Below are positions 21,783 to 29,592 of a stretch of 64,000 nucleotides of DNA, in pieces (the first letter of the stretch is position 1; each line of letters starts with the position of its first letter). Origin of the DNA: Lachnospiraceae bacterium (lineage in GTDB: Bacteria; Bacillota; Clostridia; Lachnospirales; Lachnospiraceae); assembly GCA_024695665.1 (NCBI GenBank), contig JAILHT010000066.1, positions 1-64,000 of the forward strand, written 5' to 3'. Below the pieces are notes generated by a model. That model did not search any database. It was not told where the DNA came from and saw only the letters and a list, made by a program, of their open reading frames with translations. The position numbers and the translations under genes are program-made.

Positions 21783-22688
21783 CTATTTAGTATATGAGGA
21801 TGGCGACATACGGTATTTCTTTTTAAAAGCTCTTAAAAATGTTGTATATTCCTTAAAACCTGATTGCTCAAAGGCCTCTGCCACAGGTTTACCGGAATTT
21901 AAAAGGGCAGTGGCATTTATAAGTCTCTTTTCTTCTATATAGTTGTGTAATGAATAGCCTGTCTCTTCTTTAAACTTGTGCATCAGATAGTACTTGCTCA
22001 TATAAAATCTGGTTGCTATATCATCATTGGATAGATTTTCCTTAAGATTTTTATTTATGTAGCTTATGATTTCATCTATTTTCGGATCGTATGTAATGGA
22101 TGAGAAATCTTCTTTGAAATCAGGTGAAAGAAGCAATCTGAAAAGAGAGACAAGAAAATGTTCCATATGTGAATCAGCAAGTATTTTGGCGCCAAATGCA
22201 TCTTCATTGCCGCAATGATAAGCATCCATCAACATCTTTTGCAGATCTTTTGTCAGCTCTCTCTTTAATCTGATTAGAGATGCCTTTAGTATATTGGACT
22301 TTATCTCTGTATTCTCTTCGGTGAATTTGTCGAAATAGGCATCGGATATCCATAAAACAAGACGCTCATATTCGACACTCGGGTCAATTACGGGACGGTG
22401 GATCTTGTGCATTGGAACCAAAAGAATGTCATTGTTTTTCAGCTCGTAGCTTTTGCCTTCTATTTCATAGTTGACTTTTCCGTGAATCAAAACAACAAGT
22501 TTATGAAAGTCGTGATAGTGATAATTGAATGATATCTCTTTTTTGTCTTTGATATAGAAAAGATGATAGTTTTCATTTAAGTATCCGCTCTTGTTTTCCG
22601 GATTTAGATTCTTAAGTTTTATCTCTTCATCATTAAGGTATGCCCAAGGGGCTTTTGTTTTTGTACTCATATGCTCATTATAATGCAT
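21783..22688 (-). CDS. AraC-family transcriptional regulator
   Basis: A 301-aa regulator with an N-terminal cupin sensor domain (NYHYHDFHKLVVLIHGKVNYEIEGKS split over about residues 54-80) and a C-terminal AraC double helix-turn-helix (TRFYMSKYYLMHKFKEETG and FEQSGFKEYTTFLRAFKKK). It is divergent from dapF, with no sugar or transport genes nearby, so its target is unclear. It is not a close duplicate of the AraC protein at 1039-1938. Confidence 0.85.
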   Translation of the reverse strand: MHYNEHMSTKTKAPWAYLNDEEIKLKNLNPENKSGYLNENYHLFYIKDKKEISFNYHYHDFHKLVVLIHGKVNYEIEGKSYELKNNDILLVPMHKIHRPVIDPSVEYERLVLWISDAYFDKFTEENTEIKSNILKASLIRLKRELTKDLQKMLMDAYHCGNEDAFGAKILADSHMEHFLVSLFRLLLSPDFKEDFSSITYDPKIDEIISYINKNLKENLSNDDIATRFYMSKYYLMHKFKEETGYSLHNYIEEKRLINATALLNSGKPVAEAFEQSGFKEYTTFLRAFKKKYRMSPSSYTK

Positions 22689-22725
22689 ATAGCACTTTTT
22701 GCAAGGTTGTCGACATGTTTTGCAC

Positions 22726-22753
22726 TTGGATACTGAAAAAACAGTTGTATGAT
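22726..22753 (+). promoter_or_regulatory. Candidate promoter for the DapF-like gene
   Basis: TTGGAT (22726-22731), 16-bp spacer, TATGAT (22748-22753) in the divergent intergenic region. An alternative pair (TTGTAT at 22745, TATCAG at 22768) overlaps it, so the assignment is tentative. Confidence 0.35.
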
Positions 22754-22798: not shown

Positions 22799-23644
22799 AT
22801 GGATACGATTATTTTGAGGAAATATCACGGACTTGGAAACGATTATTTGATACTTGATCCGAAAAAGAACGAGATTAAGCTTCAGGACAGATATATTGAG
22901 TTGATGTGCAGAAGAAAATACGGTATCGGATCCGACGGAATTCTATATGGACCGATTATAGAAAACGGTGAGATTCATGTAAAGATATTCAATGCGGATG
23001 GAAGTGAAGCTGAGCAGGGCGGAAATGCCGTAAGCATATTTGCAAGATATCTTAAAGACGAAAAATATGTAACTGATGAAGCCGTTGATATATATACTAA
23101 GGCAGGAAAAGTCCACGTCAGATATCTGGATGAAAAGGGTGATACACTTTGCGTGAACATGGGAAAAGCTGCTTTCTTCTCAATCGGAAATACTATAGAG
23201 ATGCCTGATACAGATATGAAAACAGAGCCTTTGCAGTTTAATGGAAATATGTACAACACGGTTTGTCTTTCAATAGGAACGCCAAACTGTGTAATAATGA
23301 CTGAAAATGTATCTGAGGGCTGTGCCGAAGAACTGGGACCTTATGTTGAGAATGCAGATTATTTTCCAACAAGAATAAATATGGAGCTTATGAAAGTTGT
23401 ATCGAGGGATACACTTGAGATTGAGAATTATGCAAGAGGTGAGGGATATGTTCCTTCCTCGGGAACGGGCGCCTGTGCTGCGGCTGCGGCAGCATATAAG
23501 ATGGGACTTACAGACAGTAAAGTTACCGTAAAGATGCCGGGCGGAGATATGCAGATTGAGATAGCGGATAACAAGGACGTTTTTATGACCGGACATGTTG
23601 TACCTGTAGGAGAAGTGACACTGGCTGAGAACTTTTTCGCATAA
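22799..23644 (+). CDS. dapF: DapF-family protein lacking both catalytic cysteines
   Basis: A 281-aa protein with the full fold and many signatures of diaminopimelate epimerase, which converts LL- to meso-diaminopimelate: KYHGLGNDYLILD at the start, FNADGSEAE, SIGTPNCVI, and a SGTGACAAA segment. The two active-site cysteines of the family (Cys73 and Cys217 in the H. influenzae enzyme) are replaced: residue 74 is Gly (EQGGNA instead of QCGNG) and residue 221 is Ser (SSGTGA instead of ACGSGA). A Cys remains at 225 but in the non-catalytic position. It may be a variant epimerase or have another reaction. Start at 22799 is supported by GGAGG seven bases upstream; a longer in-frame ORF from 22640 is not. 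Confidence 0.8.
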   Translation: MDTIILRKYHGLGNDYLILDPKKNEIKLQDRYIELMCRRKYGIGSDGILYGPIIENGEIHVKIFNADGSEAEQGGNAVSIFARYLKDEKYVTDEAVDIYTKAGKVHVRYLDEKGDTLCVNMGKAAFFSIGNTIEMPDTDMKTEPLQFNGNMYNTVCLSIGTPNCVIMTENVSEGCAEELGPYVENADYFPTRINMELMKVVSRDTLEIENYARGEGYVPSSGTGACAAAAAAYKMGLTDSKVTVKMPGGDMQIEIADNKDVFMTGHVVPVGEVTLAENFFA

Positions 23645-25677: not shown

Positions 25678-26829
25678 ATGACAAAAATTGACATAATTTC
25701 AGGTTTCCTTGGAGCAGGAAAAACTACTCTTATAAAGAAACTCCTCGAGGAAGTATTCAAAGGAGAGAAGGTAGCCCTGATTGAGAATGAATACGGTGAA
25801 GTAGGAATCGACGGAGGATTTTTGAAGGATTCCGGAATACAGATTACAGAGATGAATTCAGGATGTATCTGTTGTACACTTGTCGGAGATTTTGCAAAGA
25901 GTCTTCATGAGGTACTTGATACATATCATCCGGACAGAATCATTATTGAGCCGTCAGGAGTAGGAAAACTTTCTGATGTTATGAAGTCGGTGCTCGATTT
26001 TGAGAGAGAAGCTGATGTTAAGCTTAACGGACTTGTAGCAGTTGTCAATGCGAAGAAGGCAGCTAAGCAGATGAAAGCTTTCGGTGAGTTTTTTAACAAC
26101 CAGATTGCCTATGCCACAACAATTGTCTTGAGCCGTACAACAGATGCTTCGGATGCGCTTCTAGAAGCAACGGTTAAGCAGATGCAGGAACTCAATTCAA
26201 AGGCAGCTATCATCACAACTCCATGGGAAGATATTTCCGGTGAGGCTATAGTAAAGGTAATCGAAGGACAGGACAATCTTGAGATAAAGGTACTTGCAGA
26301 AGCTGAGGCAGACAAGGATGCTGCTGAGCATGAGCATCATCACCATGACCACGATCATGAGGACCATGAACATCATCACCATGACCACGATCATGAGGAG
26401 CATGAACATCACCATCATGACCACGATCATGAGGAGCATGAACATCACCATGACCACGATCATGAGGAGCATGAACATCACCATCATGACCACGATCATG
26501 AGGACCATGAGCATCATGACCACGACCATGAGCATCATCACCATCATGCTGATGATATTTTTGACAGCTGGGGAAAAGAGACTCCGCATAAGTACACAAA
26601 GGAGAAGATTGAGGAAATCTTAAAGGCTCTAGCTGATGATGACGAGTACAGCAACGTGCTCAGAGCAAAAGGTATGGTAATGAATGCCAATGGCGGATGG
26701 ATCTATTTCGATATGGTTCCGGGAGAGTATGAAATCCGTGAAGGTGAGCCGGATTATACCGGAAGACTTTGCGTAATCGGAACAGGAATAGATGATGACA
26801 AGATGTCCAAACTTTTTGAATTGGTTTAA
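25678..26829 (+). CDS. CobW/G3E-family metal-chaperone GTPase with His-rich insert
   Basis: A 383-aa GTPase of the CobW/YeiR/ZNG1 group, which loads zinc, cobalt or nickel into target proteins. The P-loop GFLGAGKTT is at residues 9-17, and the metal-binding CxCC motif (GCICC) is at 62-66. A histidine/aspartate/glutamate-rich insert at about 218-291 consists of six 11- or 12-residue repeats and should bind several metal ions. The CobW C-terminal domain follows (about 305-383). It heads a run that includes a second CobW-like protein. The metal is not determinable from sequence; no Zur site is obvious. Confidence 0.88.
   Translation: MTKIDIISGFLGAGKTTLIKKLLEEVFKGEKVALIENEYGEVGIDGGFLKDSGIQITEMNSGCICCTLVGDFAKSLHEVLDTYHPDRIIIEPSGVGKLSDVMKSVLDFEREADVKLNGLVAVVNAKKAAKQMKAFGEFFNNQIAYATTIVLSRTTDASDALLEATVKQMQELNSKAAIITTPWEDISGEAIVKVIEGQDNLEIKVLAEAEADKDAAEHEHHHHDHDHEDHEHHHHDHDHEEHEHHHHDHDHEEHEHHHDHDHEEHEHHHHDHDHEDHEHHDHDHEHHHHHADDIFDSWGKETPHKYTKEKIEEILKALADDDEYSNVLRAKGMVMNANGGWIYFDMVPGEYEIREGEPDYTGRLCVIGTGIDDDKMSKLFELV
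26329..26550 (+). repeat. In-frame 36-bp tandem repeat coding for the His-rich segment
   Basis: Units of 36 bp start at 26329, 26365, 26401 and 26470; one unit (26437-26469) is 33 bp and lacks one His codon; a degenerate last unit runs from 26506. The consensus peptide is HEHHHHDHDHEE. All changes keep the frame, as expected for a repeat that expands and contracts under selection for metal binding. Confidence 0.9.
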
Positions 26830-26925
26830 CTTAGTCGTAGAAATCCCAAACTGCTAAGAGTTAGAGTGTTGGGGGATGACAAACTATACTCGCAAGTGAG
26901 TATGGACTAATAAGAGGAAATAAAA

Positions 26926-27867
26926 ATGGAAGAAATACCTGTATATTTATTTACGGGCTTTATGGATAGCGGTAAGACATCTCTTATCAAACAGACGCTG
27001 ATTGAGGACGGTTTTGCATCAGAGGGCAAATCCCTTCTCATAGTCTGTGAAGATGGTGATGAGGAGTATGATGAGGCCGAGATGGCGAAAATCAACACCA
27101 AGATTCTCTATGTTGAAAAAGAGGAAGATTTTACCGATGAACTGCTGAAAAATATAAATCTCCAATATTTGCCGGATCAGGTTTTTATCGAATTTAACGG
27201 TACATGGGGAGCGGAGACTTTTGTCGACAGGAAGCTCCCGGAGGGGTGGATATTGGTGCAGAGTCTTTGTACTATCGATGCATCAACATTTGAGATGTAT
27301 ATGCAGAATATGAGAGCTATGATGTTGGATCAGTTCTTTGATGCGGATGTTGTTATTTTCAACAGATGCACACTTGATACTGCAAGGGCAAAATTCAGAG
27401 CAAATATAAAGCAGACTAACAGAAGAGCACAAATAGTATATGAGTTGACTGATGGATCCATTGATGAGAGGGAAGAGGAACTTCCGTTTGACATAAATGC
27501 TGATGTTATCGAACTTTCGGATGCAGATTATGCACTTTGGTTTATGGATTGTCAGGATAACCCTAAGAAATATGACAAAAAGAAAATTCACTTTCTTGCG
27601 CTTGTTTACAATCCGGACAAACTCGGAAAAGGGCTTATGGTTCCGGGAAGATTTGCGATGACGTGCTGCGTTGAGGATGTTCAGTTTATAGGATTTAAAT
27701 GTAAATATGCCAAAGAAAATGAAATTCCGCACAAATCATGGATAGATATAACAGCTGAGGTTCATGTGGAATTTGCAAAAGAGTACAGAGGAAAAGGCCC
27801 TGTTTTATATCCGATAGATATAAAGCCGGCAAGCAAACCTGAAGACGAACTTGTTTATTTTTCATAA
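26926..27867 (+). CDS. CobW-like GTPase fused to a YcgQ/DUF1980-like C-terminal domain
   Basis: A 313-aa protein. The N-terminal part is CobW-like with a P-loop (GFMDSGKTS, residues 10-18), but the CxCC metal motif is absent. The C-terminal part contains GRFAMTCCVEDVQFIGF (about 240-256), which resembles the conserved CC-x-x-D motif of DUF1980/TIGR03943 proteins such as YcgQ, partners of a permease linked to metal homeostasis. This is recalled similarity, not a search. It follows the His-rich GTPase by 96 bases; both probably act in metal allocation. The amidase gene starts 15 bases downstream. Confidence 0.7.
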   Translation: MEEIPVYLFTGFMDSGKTSLIKQTLIEDGFASEGKSLLIVCEDGDEEYDEAEMAKINTKILYVEKEEDFTDELLKNINLQYLPDQVFIEFNGTWGAETFVDRKLPEGWILVQSLCTIDASTFEMYMQNMRAMMLDQFFDADVVIFNRCTLDTARAKFRANIKQTNRRAQIVYELTDGSIDEREEELPFDINADVIELSDADYALWFMDCQDNPKKYDKKKIHFLALVYNPDKLGKGLMVPGRFAMTCCVEDVQFIGFKCKYAKENEIPHKSWIDITAEVHVEFAKEYRGKGPVLYPIDIKPASKPEDELVYFS

Positions 27868-27882
27868 AGGTGGATTGACGTA

Positions 27883-29592
27883 TTGAAATATTATCGTATA
27901 GATAAAAACGGAAACAAAACCGTGGTTGAAAAGAAAAAGAAAAGCACGGCTTACAAACTGCAAGCTGCTATAAAATGGATGGTTTGTTTTGCGGCATTGT
28001 TTTTGGTCATATGCGGAATCGGAGTACTTGATAAAAAAATAGACGGAATAAATCTCCTTTCAAATATCTCGGAGAAACTGGAAGAAATAACTGAAGGGGA
28101 AACAGAGGAGACTTCAACAGAAGAGGAAACTGAAGCCGCCGAGGAAGAAACGGAAGATTCCGGAGTTTTATTTACTGTTTGTGTTGACCCCGGACATGGT
28201 GGAATCGACAGAGGAAATCAAGATAACGGAAGAGATGAATGTGATGACAACTTTAATCTGGCTCTTAAACTTAAAGCAGAGCTTGAAGCATTAAATATAG
28301 GAGTTGTAATGACAAGGACCGAGGATGTAAAAGTCTTTCTCGAAGAGAGGGTGACGATAGCGAACAACTCGGGGGCTACATATTTTATATCTTTACACAG
28401 GAATTCCGGTGACGGTTACGGTGTTGAATCGTGGATAAACGGTTCAGGAACCTCGGAAGAAACGCAGACATACGGCCAGATGATTCATGATGCAATAATA
28501 GCAGTGGGAGCAACCAGAGATCGAACATTAAAGACCGGATCCGAGAGTGACTCCAACGGTGGGTATTATGTTTTGAGAAATACCAATATGCCGGCAGTAC
28601 TTATAGAACTTGGCTTTATGGATTACGAGGAGGATAATGTCCTCTTTGATCAAAACATGGACGCTTACGCGAAAGCTATAGCCGATGCTATTTATCAGTG
28701 CTATCAGATATATCATGGGGAGGATAGCGAAAGCGACAACTCCACTGAGGATGGCGCGGAGACAACTACAGAAGATGCAACTGAGGACACCGAAGAAACG
28801 GCAGCATCCGTTTCTTCGGAAGTTTCATATACGGGGATGACTTTGAACTATGAAGCCATCGAGGATATCAACTCACTTGACAGTGATATTTTAAACTGGT
28901 CGCAGGGTAACAAGTTGGATTCAAGTAATATCCCGACTGCCTGTAGCGATTACAATTCAAAATACGGGGGATATAATGCTGATTTTTTTGTGGACAGCGG
29001 GCAGGATAAAACCCTTTATCTGACTTTTGACGAGACTTATGAGTACGGATGTACTTCAGATATTTTGAGTACATTGAAAGAAAAGGGAGTCCAGTCCGTA
29101 TTTTTTGTAACAAAAACGTACGCAGAAGAAAATCCCGACATGGTCAGACAGATAATTGATGAAGGACATATTTTGGGGAATCTCTCCTCGACTTATCCGA
29201 CGAACGGGCTTCCATCGGAAACCTTGTCAGATCAACAAAATGAGATTATAGAGAATCATGAGTATATAAAAGAAAACTTTGGATATAATATGTATCTTTT
29301 CAGATTTCCGGAAGGCAAATTTTCTGAGCAGTCGTTGGCGCTTGCCAACAACTGCGGTTACAGGAGTGTATTCTGGAGCTTTTCATATCTGGATTATAAT
29401 GTAAACAGCCAACCGGATGAAAATGAATCATTGGAAAAACTGGTTTCCAAACTACATCCCGGAGCAATATATCTTCTACACGGACAGTCCCGTACCAACG
29501 CGGATATACTGGGCGATTTTATATCGCAGGCTAAGGCGGCCGGATATAGCTTTGCAAGCTATGCCGATATTGCCGCAAAAACGATTCAGTAA
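27883..29592 (+). CDS. N-acetylmuramoyl-L-alanine amidase fused to degenerate PdaA-like deacetylase domain
   Basis: A 569-aa exported, membrane-anchored protein: one N-terminal helix (about residues 28-50), a Glu/Thr linker, an Amidase_3 (CwlD/AmiC-like) domain at about 95-285, a second acidic linker, and a polysaccharide-deacetylase domain at about 375-569. Amidase zinc ligands are visible: His105 in DPGHGG, Glu in the RDECDDNFNL region, His in SLHRN and Glu in LIELGF. The deacetylase part resembles PdaA (GAIYLLH, FWSFSYLDYN), but the metal motif NHSxxHP reads NLSSTYP (Leu434, Tyr438) and the first motif is TFDET. It starts with TTG at 27883 after AAAGGTGG. Confidence 0.85.
   Translation: MKYYRIDKNGNKTVVEKKKKSTAYKLQAAIKWMVCFAALFLVICGIGVLDKKIDGINLLSNISEKLEEITEGETEETSTEEETEAAEEETEDSGVLFTVCVDPGHGGIDRGNQDNGRDECDDNFNLALKLKAELEALNIGVVMTRTEDVKVFLEERVTIANNSGATYFISLHRNSGDGYGVESWINGSGTSEETQTYGQMIHDAIIAVGATRDRTLKTGSESDSNGGYYVLRNTNMPAVLIELGFMDYEEDNVLFDQNMDAYAKAIADAIYQCYQIYHGEDSESDNSTEDGAETTTEDATEDTEETAASVSSEVSYTGMTLNYEAIEDINSLDSDILNWSQGNKLDSSNIPTACSDYNSKYGGYNADFFVDSGQDKTLYLTFDETYEYGCTSDILSTLKEKGVQSVFFVTKTYAEENPDMVRQIIDEGHILGNLSSTYPTNGLPSETLSDQQNEIIENHEYIKENFGYNMYLFRFPEGKFSEQSLALANNCGYRSVFWSFSYLDYNVNSQPDENESLEKLVSKLHPGAIYLLHGQSRTNADILGDFISQAKAAGYSFASYADIAAKTIQ

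What the first reader, a model, noticed from the sequence alone, without database searches (positions are those of the whole stretch)
22799..23644. DapF homologue with both catalytic cysteines replaced
Diaminopimelate epimerase needs two cysteines acting as base and acid. Aligned by their motifs, the first is Gly74 (QGGNA for QCGNG) and the second is Ser221 (SSGTGACA for ACGSGACA). The rest of the family pattern is intact and the gene is not decaying. I recall Ser variants of this kind in other clostridia. Either another residue pair does the chemistry, or the protein is a different isomerase, or a second DapF exists in the genome.
Basis: partly seen in the sequence, partly recalled or inferred. 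Interest (0 to 1): 0.62.

Follow-up and report, generated by a model that had tools for sequence, protein, structure and literature searches.

The report
Cysteine-free DapF relative with own switch
This gene looks like the enzyme that flips a cell-wall amino acid (DapF), but it has lost both catalytic cysteines; it belongs to a conserved, apparently unstudied branch found in many gut-type Clostridia beside a normal DapF, usually with its own regulator gene, so it probably does a different job.

Summary
In detail: P0001 (22799-23644) is a DapF-family protein with Gly74 and Ser221 where DapF has its catalytic cysteines. The sister species has the same residues, so this is not a sequencing error. 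One correction: the rest of the active site is not intact. GNPH has become GTPN and ERG has become ARG, so two residues that contact the far end of diaminopimelate (DAP) are lost too.

The same genome has a Cys/Cys DapF and a DapL, so P0001 need not be its DAP epimerase. P0001 belongs to a well-separated branch of DapF-like proteins (84 collected) whose usual state is Ser/Ser (67 of 84). The branch occurs in 66 of 397 sampled family genomes, and all 60 of those re-tested also carry a second DapF.

In 57 of 84 loci an AraC-type regulator lies divergently upstream. In 50 of 84 the intergenic stretch holds a conserved site with two half-sites 21 bp apart; the window has an exact copy. Against its sister P0001 is as constrained as FtsZ.

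Best reading: a dedicated, regulated DapF paralogue that binds a DAP-like amino acid but cannot do two-cysteine epimerisation. Its chemistry is unproven. A working Ser/Ser epimerase is not excluded, but sole-copy Ala/Ser DapFs in related genomes weaken that case.

The parts
22799..23644 (+). Cysteine-free DapF paralogue P0001 (281 aa), Gly74/Ser221; also Thr161, Asn163 and Ala212 in place of Asn, His and Glu
   Evidence: translation; TIGR00652 and PF01678 hits; alignment with solved DapFs; column counts
23018..23020 (+). Gly74 codon, at the place of the first catalytic cysteine
   Evidence: sequence; alignment
23459..23461 (+). Ser221 codon, at the place of the second catalytic cysteine
   Evidence: sequence; alignment
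21783..22688 (-). AraC-family regulator (cupin-type sensor domain plus HTH_18), divergent from P0001
   Evidence: Pfam hits; the same regulator family lies divergently upstream in 57 of 84 branch loci
22691..22704 (+). Operator half-site 1, AGCACTTTTTGCAA, exact match to the consensus AGCANTNTTTGCAA
   Evidence: the DNA search; conserved upstream of the gene in 50 of 84 branch loci
22712..22725 (+). Weaker second half-site, GACATGTTTTGCAC, 21 bp after the first
   Evidence: 21-bp period of the motif across 40 non-redundant loci; the window copy is read by eye
22748..22753 (+). Possible -10 element TATGAT of the P0001 promoter, at the place of the conserved TATAAT-like block
   Evidence: aligned consensus; no sigma-70 match reported here by the scan
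22677..22704 (-). Promoter-like match (TTGCAA, 16, TATAAT) for the AraC gene, whose -35 overlaps half-site 1
   Evidence: scan (such matches are no more frequent in the region than in shuffles)

Best explanation
P0001 is a member of a distinct, conserved, cysteine-free branch of DapF paralogues (usual state Ser/Ser) and is not the genome's DAP epimerase. Shown: branch, second DapF, conserved neighbour regulator, conserved operator-like site, purifying selection. Inferred: the divergent AraC protein binds the two half-sites and switches the gene on when it senses a small molecule. The protein then closes over an alpha-amino acid in the usual DapF cleft: the alpha-carboxylate is held by the helix ends at Gly75-Asn76 and Gly222-Thr223, the alpha-amine by Asn14, and the far end by Asn65, Asn194 and Arg213. 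With Gly74 on one face and only Ser221 on the other, the two-base proton swap of DapF is not available to it. The most likely action is a one-base reaction (elimination, dehydration or one-sided proton exchange) on a DAP-like amino acid altered at its far end; plain ligand binding comes next.
For: Second Cys/Cys DapF and DapL in the same genome. Branch separated from canonical DapF, SH-aLRT 100. Pair in the branch: S/S 67, G/S 8, S/T 6, S/N 1, C/S 1, S/unread 1 of 84; canonical set C/C 70 of 75. DAP contacts named for Anabaena DapF (PMC12039745, passages) are all kept in 77 of 84 branch members, but two are lost in the window genus. AraC divergent in 57 of 84 loci; operator-like site in 50 of 84, 47 of 57 with AraC against 3 of 27 without. 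pN/pS 0.150. Precedent for one-base work: a Ser/Thr pair in trans-3-hydroxyproline dehydratase (PMC4113996, passages).
Against: No substrate, assay or usable model: the AlphaFold model is poor (mean pLDDT 37.1). The only recurrent neighbour is the regulator, so neighbours give no pathway. The one-base step is analogy from a different subfamily with different substrates. The second site also accepts Thr or Asn and the first accepts Gly, which fits a non-catalytic protein as well. Gly74 lineages other than the window genus keep all DAP contacts.
Confidence: 0.5

Rival explanations
1. The Ser/Ser branch are working, thiol-free DAP epimerases: two serines do the 1,1-proton transfer. In Lachnospiraceae they are a regulated second copy, for instance for conditions that inactivate the Cys/Cys enzyme; P0001 is a weakened derivative.
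For: In G040, G1005, G644 and G664 the branch gene is the only DapF homologue found; G644 is a one-contig genome. G040 and G1005 also carry DapL, and the dapF usually found between the ANTAR gene and dapL is missing there. DAP contacts are kept in 77 of 84. An active Ser/Cys 4-hydroxyproline epimerase is known (PMC4113996, passages).
Against: Cys-to-Ser mutants of a DapF-fold racemase lose most activity (PMC11602996, passages). Relatives of G040 have sole DapFs with Ala/Ser (G971, G985) or Ala/Cys (G975), so being the only copy does not prove activity. A PLP-dependent replacement for DapF is proposed in print (PMC9026213, passages); neither it nor Ddh was looked for here. P0001 itself has only one serine and has lost two contacts.
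Confidence: 0.2
2. P0001 is a ligand-binding pseudoenzyme: it binds a DAP-like amino acid or cell-wall fragment and works with, or buffers, the AraC regulator instead of doing chemistry.
For: Both catalytic positions vary (Gly/Ser, Ser/Ser, Ser/Thr, Ser/Asn) while fold and cradle residues stay. The regulator is the only recurrent partner. Hits to the operator elsewhere in the loci are about as frequent as chance (21 in 1.34 Mb; chance mean 0.81 per 64 kb of window).
Against: No precedent that I know of for a DapF-fold co-sensor. 27 of 84 loci had no regulator called next to the gene, and the basal sole-copy members have none.
Confidence: 0.22
3. A racemase or epimerase for another amino acid that uses branch-specific residues (such as the invariant Tyr217) as acid or base.
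For: Tyr217 is invariant (83 of 83 readable rows) where canonical DapF has Glu (74 of 75); other branch-specific residues are Tyr9, Cys37, Phe81 and Glu209.
Against: The position reads Ile in the best solved relative (9mro, alignment), so it is not a known catalytic site, and no structure places the Tyr near the substrate.
Confidence: 0.08
4. Decaying pseudogene or assembly error.
For: Two catalytic residues and two contacts lost.
Against: Full-length frame, same residues in an independent sister genome, pN/pS 0.150, operator and regulator kept.
Confidence: 0.02

Closest known systems
Diaminopimelate epimerase DapF (TIGR00652, EC 5.1.1.7)
   Same: Whole-length family match above the curated cut-off; both GN.. 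and ..GTGACA helix caps; Asn14, Asn65, Asn194 and Arg213 kept
   Different: No catalytic cysteine; Asn161 to Thr and Glu212 to Ala; separate branch; AraC partner and operator
Proline racemase superfamily members with Ser/Cys or Ser/Thr pairs (4-hydroxyproline epimerase, trans-3-hydroxyproline dehydratase)
   Same: Serine in place of the first catalytic cysteine, as in the Ser/Ser relatives; DapF-like fold; shows that the pair can change and the enzyme still work (PMC4113996, passages)
   Different: Different subfamily and substrates; P0001 has Gly, not Ser, at the first place
DapF-fold racemases with other substrates (F. nucleatum histidine racemase, CntK, O-ureidoserine racemase)
   Same: Precedent that a 'dapF' can be another enzyme (PMC11602996, passages); O-ureidoserine racemase 7vdy is a weaker hit of P0001
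   Different: The first two keep both cysteines; CntK and the histidine racemase did not appear among the 17 solved sequences matched
DapF2, the PLP-dependent proposed replacement of DapF (PMC9026213, passages)
   Same: Also an alternative to canonical DapF, proposed from genome context
   Different: Alanine-racemase-like, unrelated to P0001; the name is taken, so I do not use it here

Membership tests
DapF family (TIGR00652 / PF01678) | Whole-protein score above the curated cut-off | tested here: met
   205.7 vs 114.65 bits and 163.8 vs 34.7 bits
DAP epimerase (EC 5.1.1.7) | Two catalytic cysteines, one at the head of each central helix | tested here: not met
   Gly74 and Ser221
DAP epimerase (EC 5.1.1.7) | Full set of DAP contacts (Asn13, Asn66, Asn164, Asn197, Glu215, Arg216 of Anabaena DapF) | tested here: not met
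   4 of 6 kept; Asn164 is Thr161 and Glu215 is Ala212
DAP epimerase (EC 5.1.1.7) | Measured LL-DAP/meso-DAP interconversion | not testable with these tools
   needs a bench assay
Cysteine-free (Ser/Ser) DapF branch defined here | Falls inside the branch in a tree | tested here: met
   SH-aLRT 100 for the split from canonical DapF
Cysteine-free (Ser/Ser) DapF branch defined here | Branch-specific residues Tyr9, Cys37, Ile80, Phe81, Glu209, Tyr217 | tested here: met
   all present in P0001
Cysteine-free (Ser/Ser) DapF branch defined here | Ser at both catalytic positions | tested here: not met
   Gly at the first; 67 of 84 members are Ser/Ser, 8 of 84 Gly/Ser
AraC family (the partner, 21783-22688) | AraC-type HTH and sensor domain above cut-off | tested here: met
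   HTH_18 67.4 bits, AraC_binding 46.1 bits
Proline racemase superfamily one-base dehydratases | Ser/Thr catalytic pair | tested here: not met
   the pair of P0001 is Gly/Ser; substrate not testable here

The most novel reading that the evidence does not exclude
The Ser/Ser branch carries out cofactor-free amino-acid epimerisation without any thiol (in some genomes as the only DapF), and the Gly/Ser form in the window is a further step to a new one-base reaction under its own AraC switch.
Probability: 0.2. Interest if true: 0.8.

Novelty: new variant of a known kind. Interest (0 to 1): 0.55.

Why it matters
The two cysteines are the textbook basis of DapF catalysis, yet members of this branch pass the curated model for diaminopimelate epimerase (P0001; four of four Ser/Ser members scanned), so they will be named as that enzyme. 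A branch carried by about one in six sampled genomes of the family (66 of 397), beside a normal DapF and under its own regulator, is a sizeable block of doubtful annotation. It is also a direct test of whether a DapF-type active site can work with serines or with one base. The operator and regulator give a handle for finding the ligand.

Tried and rejected
Sequencing error and decay: rejected. Single gene in the genome: rejected. Pathway from neighbours: apart from AraC no neighbour family recurs across contexts; recurrences such as HflX, AddAB, argS and CobW follow subgroups. Structure: AlphaFold with the two sequences allowed gave mean pLDDT 37.1, so no fold search was run. Sole-copy argument for a working Ser/Ser epimerase: kept only as a rival, because sole Ala/Ser and Ala/Cys DapFs occur in the same family and Ddh or PLP-type replacements were not searched. 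Literature: the searches showed no paper on this branch in their listings (searches returned no papers at all); only open-licence papers are held, so this is no proof of absence. The genome-contig scan with the single protein found just two loci. A viral-contig scan found one Ser/Ser relative.

Full report
WHAT IS THERE. The frame 22799-23644(+) encodes a 281-aa protein, P0001, with GGAGG shortly before the ATG. It scores 205.7 bits against TIGR00652 DapF (cut-off 114.65) and 163.8 bits against PF01678. Its best solved relatives are DapFs (17 distinct sequences at E up to 0.001). In those alignments the first catalytic cysteine is Gly74 and the second is Ser221. The same residues occur in the sister species (82% identical, L020/L049), so an error at both codons is very unlikely.

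Passages of PMC12039745 list the residues of Anabaena DapF that hold DAP. Mapped through the alignment, P0001 keeps Asn14, Asn65, Asn194 and Arg213 and the helix-end backbone donors, but Asn164 has become Thr161 and Glu215 has become Ala212; the His of GNPH is Asn163. In 75 canonical sequences these three positions are Asn 75, Glu 72 and His 72.

THE GENOME HAS A NORMAL DapF. A Pfam search of the genome finds one more DapF, C32:12397-13248(-), with MCGNG and ACGTGACA, 32% identical to P0001, and a DapL at C156 at 605 bits against a cut-off of 364.7. The genome is 90.8% complete.

A BRANCH, NOT A FREAK. A profile of seven branch members (A1) at E up to 1e-82 finds the branch in 66 of 397 genomes of the family, 6 of 391 of the class sample and 25 of 392 of the order sample; the samples overlap. 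I fetched 83 loci and with the window had 84 members. A tree of 75 rows (51 branch members thinned at 85% identity, 23 canonical, 1 fusion) puts all branch members and the fusion on one side of a branch with SH-aLRT 100. The pair at the two cysteine positions is Ser/Ser 67, Gly/Ser 8, Ser/Thr 6, Ser/Asn 1, Cys/Ser 1 and Ser/unread 1 of 84. The canonical set is Cys/Cys 70 of 75, the other five having lost one or both. 77 of 84 branch members keep all six DAP contacts that I counted. Branch-specific residues include Tyr9, Cys37, Ile80, Phe81, Glu209 and Tyr217.

WHERE GLY74 COMES FROM. Gly74 occurs in three genera, each inside the Ser/Ser branch. Window and g29 share the string EQGGNA and CobW genes downstream. 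The tree separates them, but an AU test does not reject them as one clade (p 0.165; log-likelihood 30 lower). So the number of origins is two or three. Positional relatives with the same argS neighbour (for example L160, L164, L166, L170) are Ser/Ser.

CONSTRAINT. Against the sister species, pN/pS is 0.150 for P0001, 0.136 argS, 0.156 ftsZ, 0.118 ftsQ, 0.094 cobW and 0.332 araC. Synonymous sites are near saturation, so these are rough, but the gene is plainly kept.

THE SWITCH. Clustering of neighbours leaves one recurrent partner: an AraC-family regulator on the opposite strand just upstream, in 57 of 84 branch loci, a lower bound because the simple ORF picker missed some. In 48 intergenic stretches the 10-mer TTTGCAATAT occurs in 28, with a shuffle maximum of 5 for any 10-mer (base-composition shuffles, loci not thinned for relatedness). 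The pattern AGCANTNTTTGCAA with up to one mismatch lies upstream in 50 of 84 loci, in the same orientation as the gene (L124 has one extra inverted copy), with 21 hits elsewhere in 1.34 Mb. In 40 non-redundant loci the motif repeats with a sharp peak at 21 bp, followed by a TATAAT-like block. The site goes with the regulator: 47 of 57 loci with AraC, 3 of 27 without (Fisher p 3.5e-10, not corrected for relatedness). The window has an exact half-site at 22691-22704 (4 matches at up to one mismatch, chance mean 0.81; this is the only exact one) and a weaker second one at 22712-22725 read by eye. Direct repeats about 21 bp apart are typical of AraC-family sites (recalled). Binding itself is not shown.

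DOES THE BRANCH EPIMERISE DAP? For: in 60 of 60 tested family genomes with the branch gene (60 of the 66 found; six were not passed to the call) a second DapF is present, but in G040, G1005, G644 and G664 the branch gene is the only one found at E up to 1e-12. G040 and G1005 carry DapL; G055, G644 and G664 do not. In many relatives the order is glnA, ANTAR-like gene (name by eye), dapF, dapL; in G040 and G1005 it is glnA, ANTAR-like gene, dapL. Those sole-copy members are all Ser/Ser and have no AraC called. Against: among 38 genomes of the family of G040, 27 have only canonical-type DapFs, 2 only the branch gene, and 9 none. Some of the canonical-type sole copies read Ala/Ser (G971, G985), Ala/Cys (G975) or Cys/Ser (G907). 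Either those lineages use another route or cysteines are less needed than thought, so sole-copy status does not prove activity. Ddh was not searched. A PLP-type replacement for DapF is proposed in print (PMC9026213, passages), and in G644 an alanine-racemase-like gene (148.5 bits, below its 168 cut-off) lies two genes upstream. Cys-to-Ser mutants of a DapF-fold racemase are greatly reduced (PMC11602996, passages), while natural Ser/Cys epimerases and Ser/Thr dehydratases exist in the proline racemase superfamily (PMC4113996, passages).

HOW IT MOST LIKELY WORKS. The alpha-carboxylate cradle is intact, so an amino acid should still bind. With Gly on one face a two-base swap in the known way is excluded. 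I put a one-base reaction on a DAP-like amino acid first, ligand binding without chemistry next, a thiol-free epimerase third. These are inferences; no substrate is known.

VERDICT. A new variant of a known kind: a conserved, regulated, cysteine-free DapF branch whose members pass the DAP-epimerase model. The Gly/Ser form in the window is one of its most altered members.

Noticed in passing
L235:2689-4302 (-), genome G055: A 537-aa fusion of a PLP-dependent cysteine-synthase-like domain (PF00291, 171.5 bits) with a degenerate DapF-like domain (PF01678, 79.2 bits) that groups with the cysteine-free branch.
   Followed up: partly
L047, L237, L240, L264: DapF lies at the C-terminal end of long frames (about 1320-1400 aa) whose upstream part reads like carbamoyl-phosphate synthase large subunit (by eye, no family search): a likely CarB-DapF fusion, some with the first cysteine lost.
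   Followed up: partly
L258, L260, L240: Canonical-type DapFs that have lost one or both cysteines (Ala/Ser, Cys/Ser) although they are the only DapF found in their genomes.
   Followed up: partly
L173:102-7657 (-), genome G117: A branch DapF (cut by the contig end) follows a cysteine-synthase-like gene and four related nitrogenase-like component genes, two of which were scanned (NifE/NifD-like, far below cut-offs).
   Followed up: partly
L050:6019-6485: In Sporomusa acidovorans the branch gene is broken into pieces next to a YcaO-like gene (by eye), while a separate, intact canonical-type DapF exists.
   Followed up: no
window 25678-27867: Two adjacent CobW-like GTPase genes, the first with a long His/Asp-rich repeat, downstream of argS (named by eye).
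   Followed up: no
window 27883-29592: One frame that looks like an N-acetylmuramoyl-L-alanine amidase joined to a polysaccharide deacetylase-like part (by eye).
   Followed up: no
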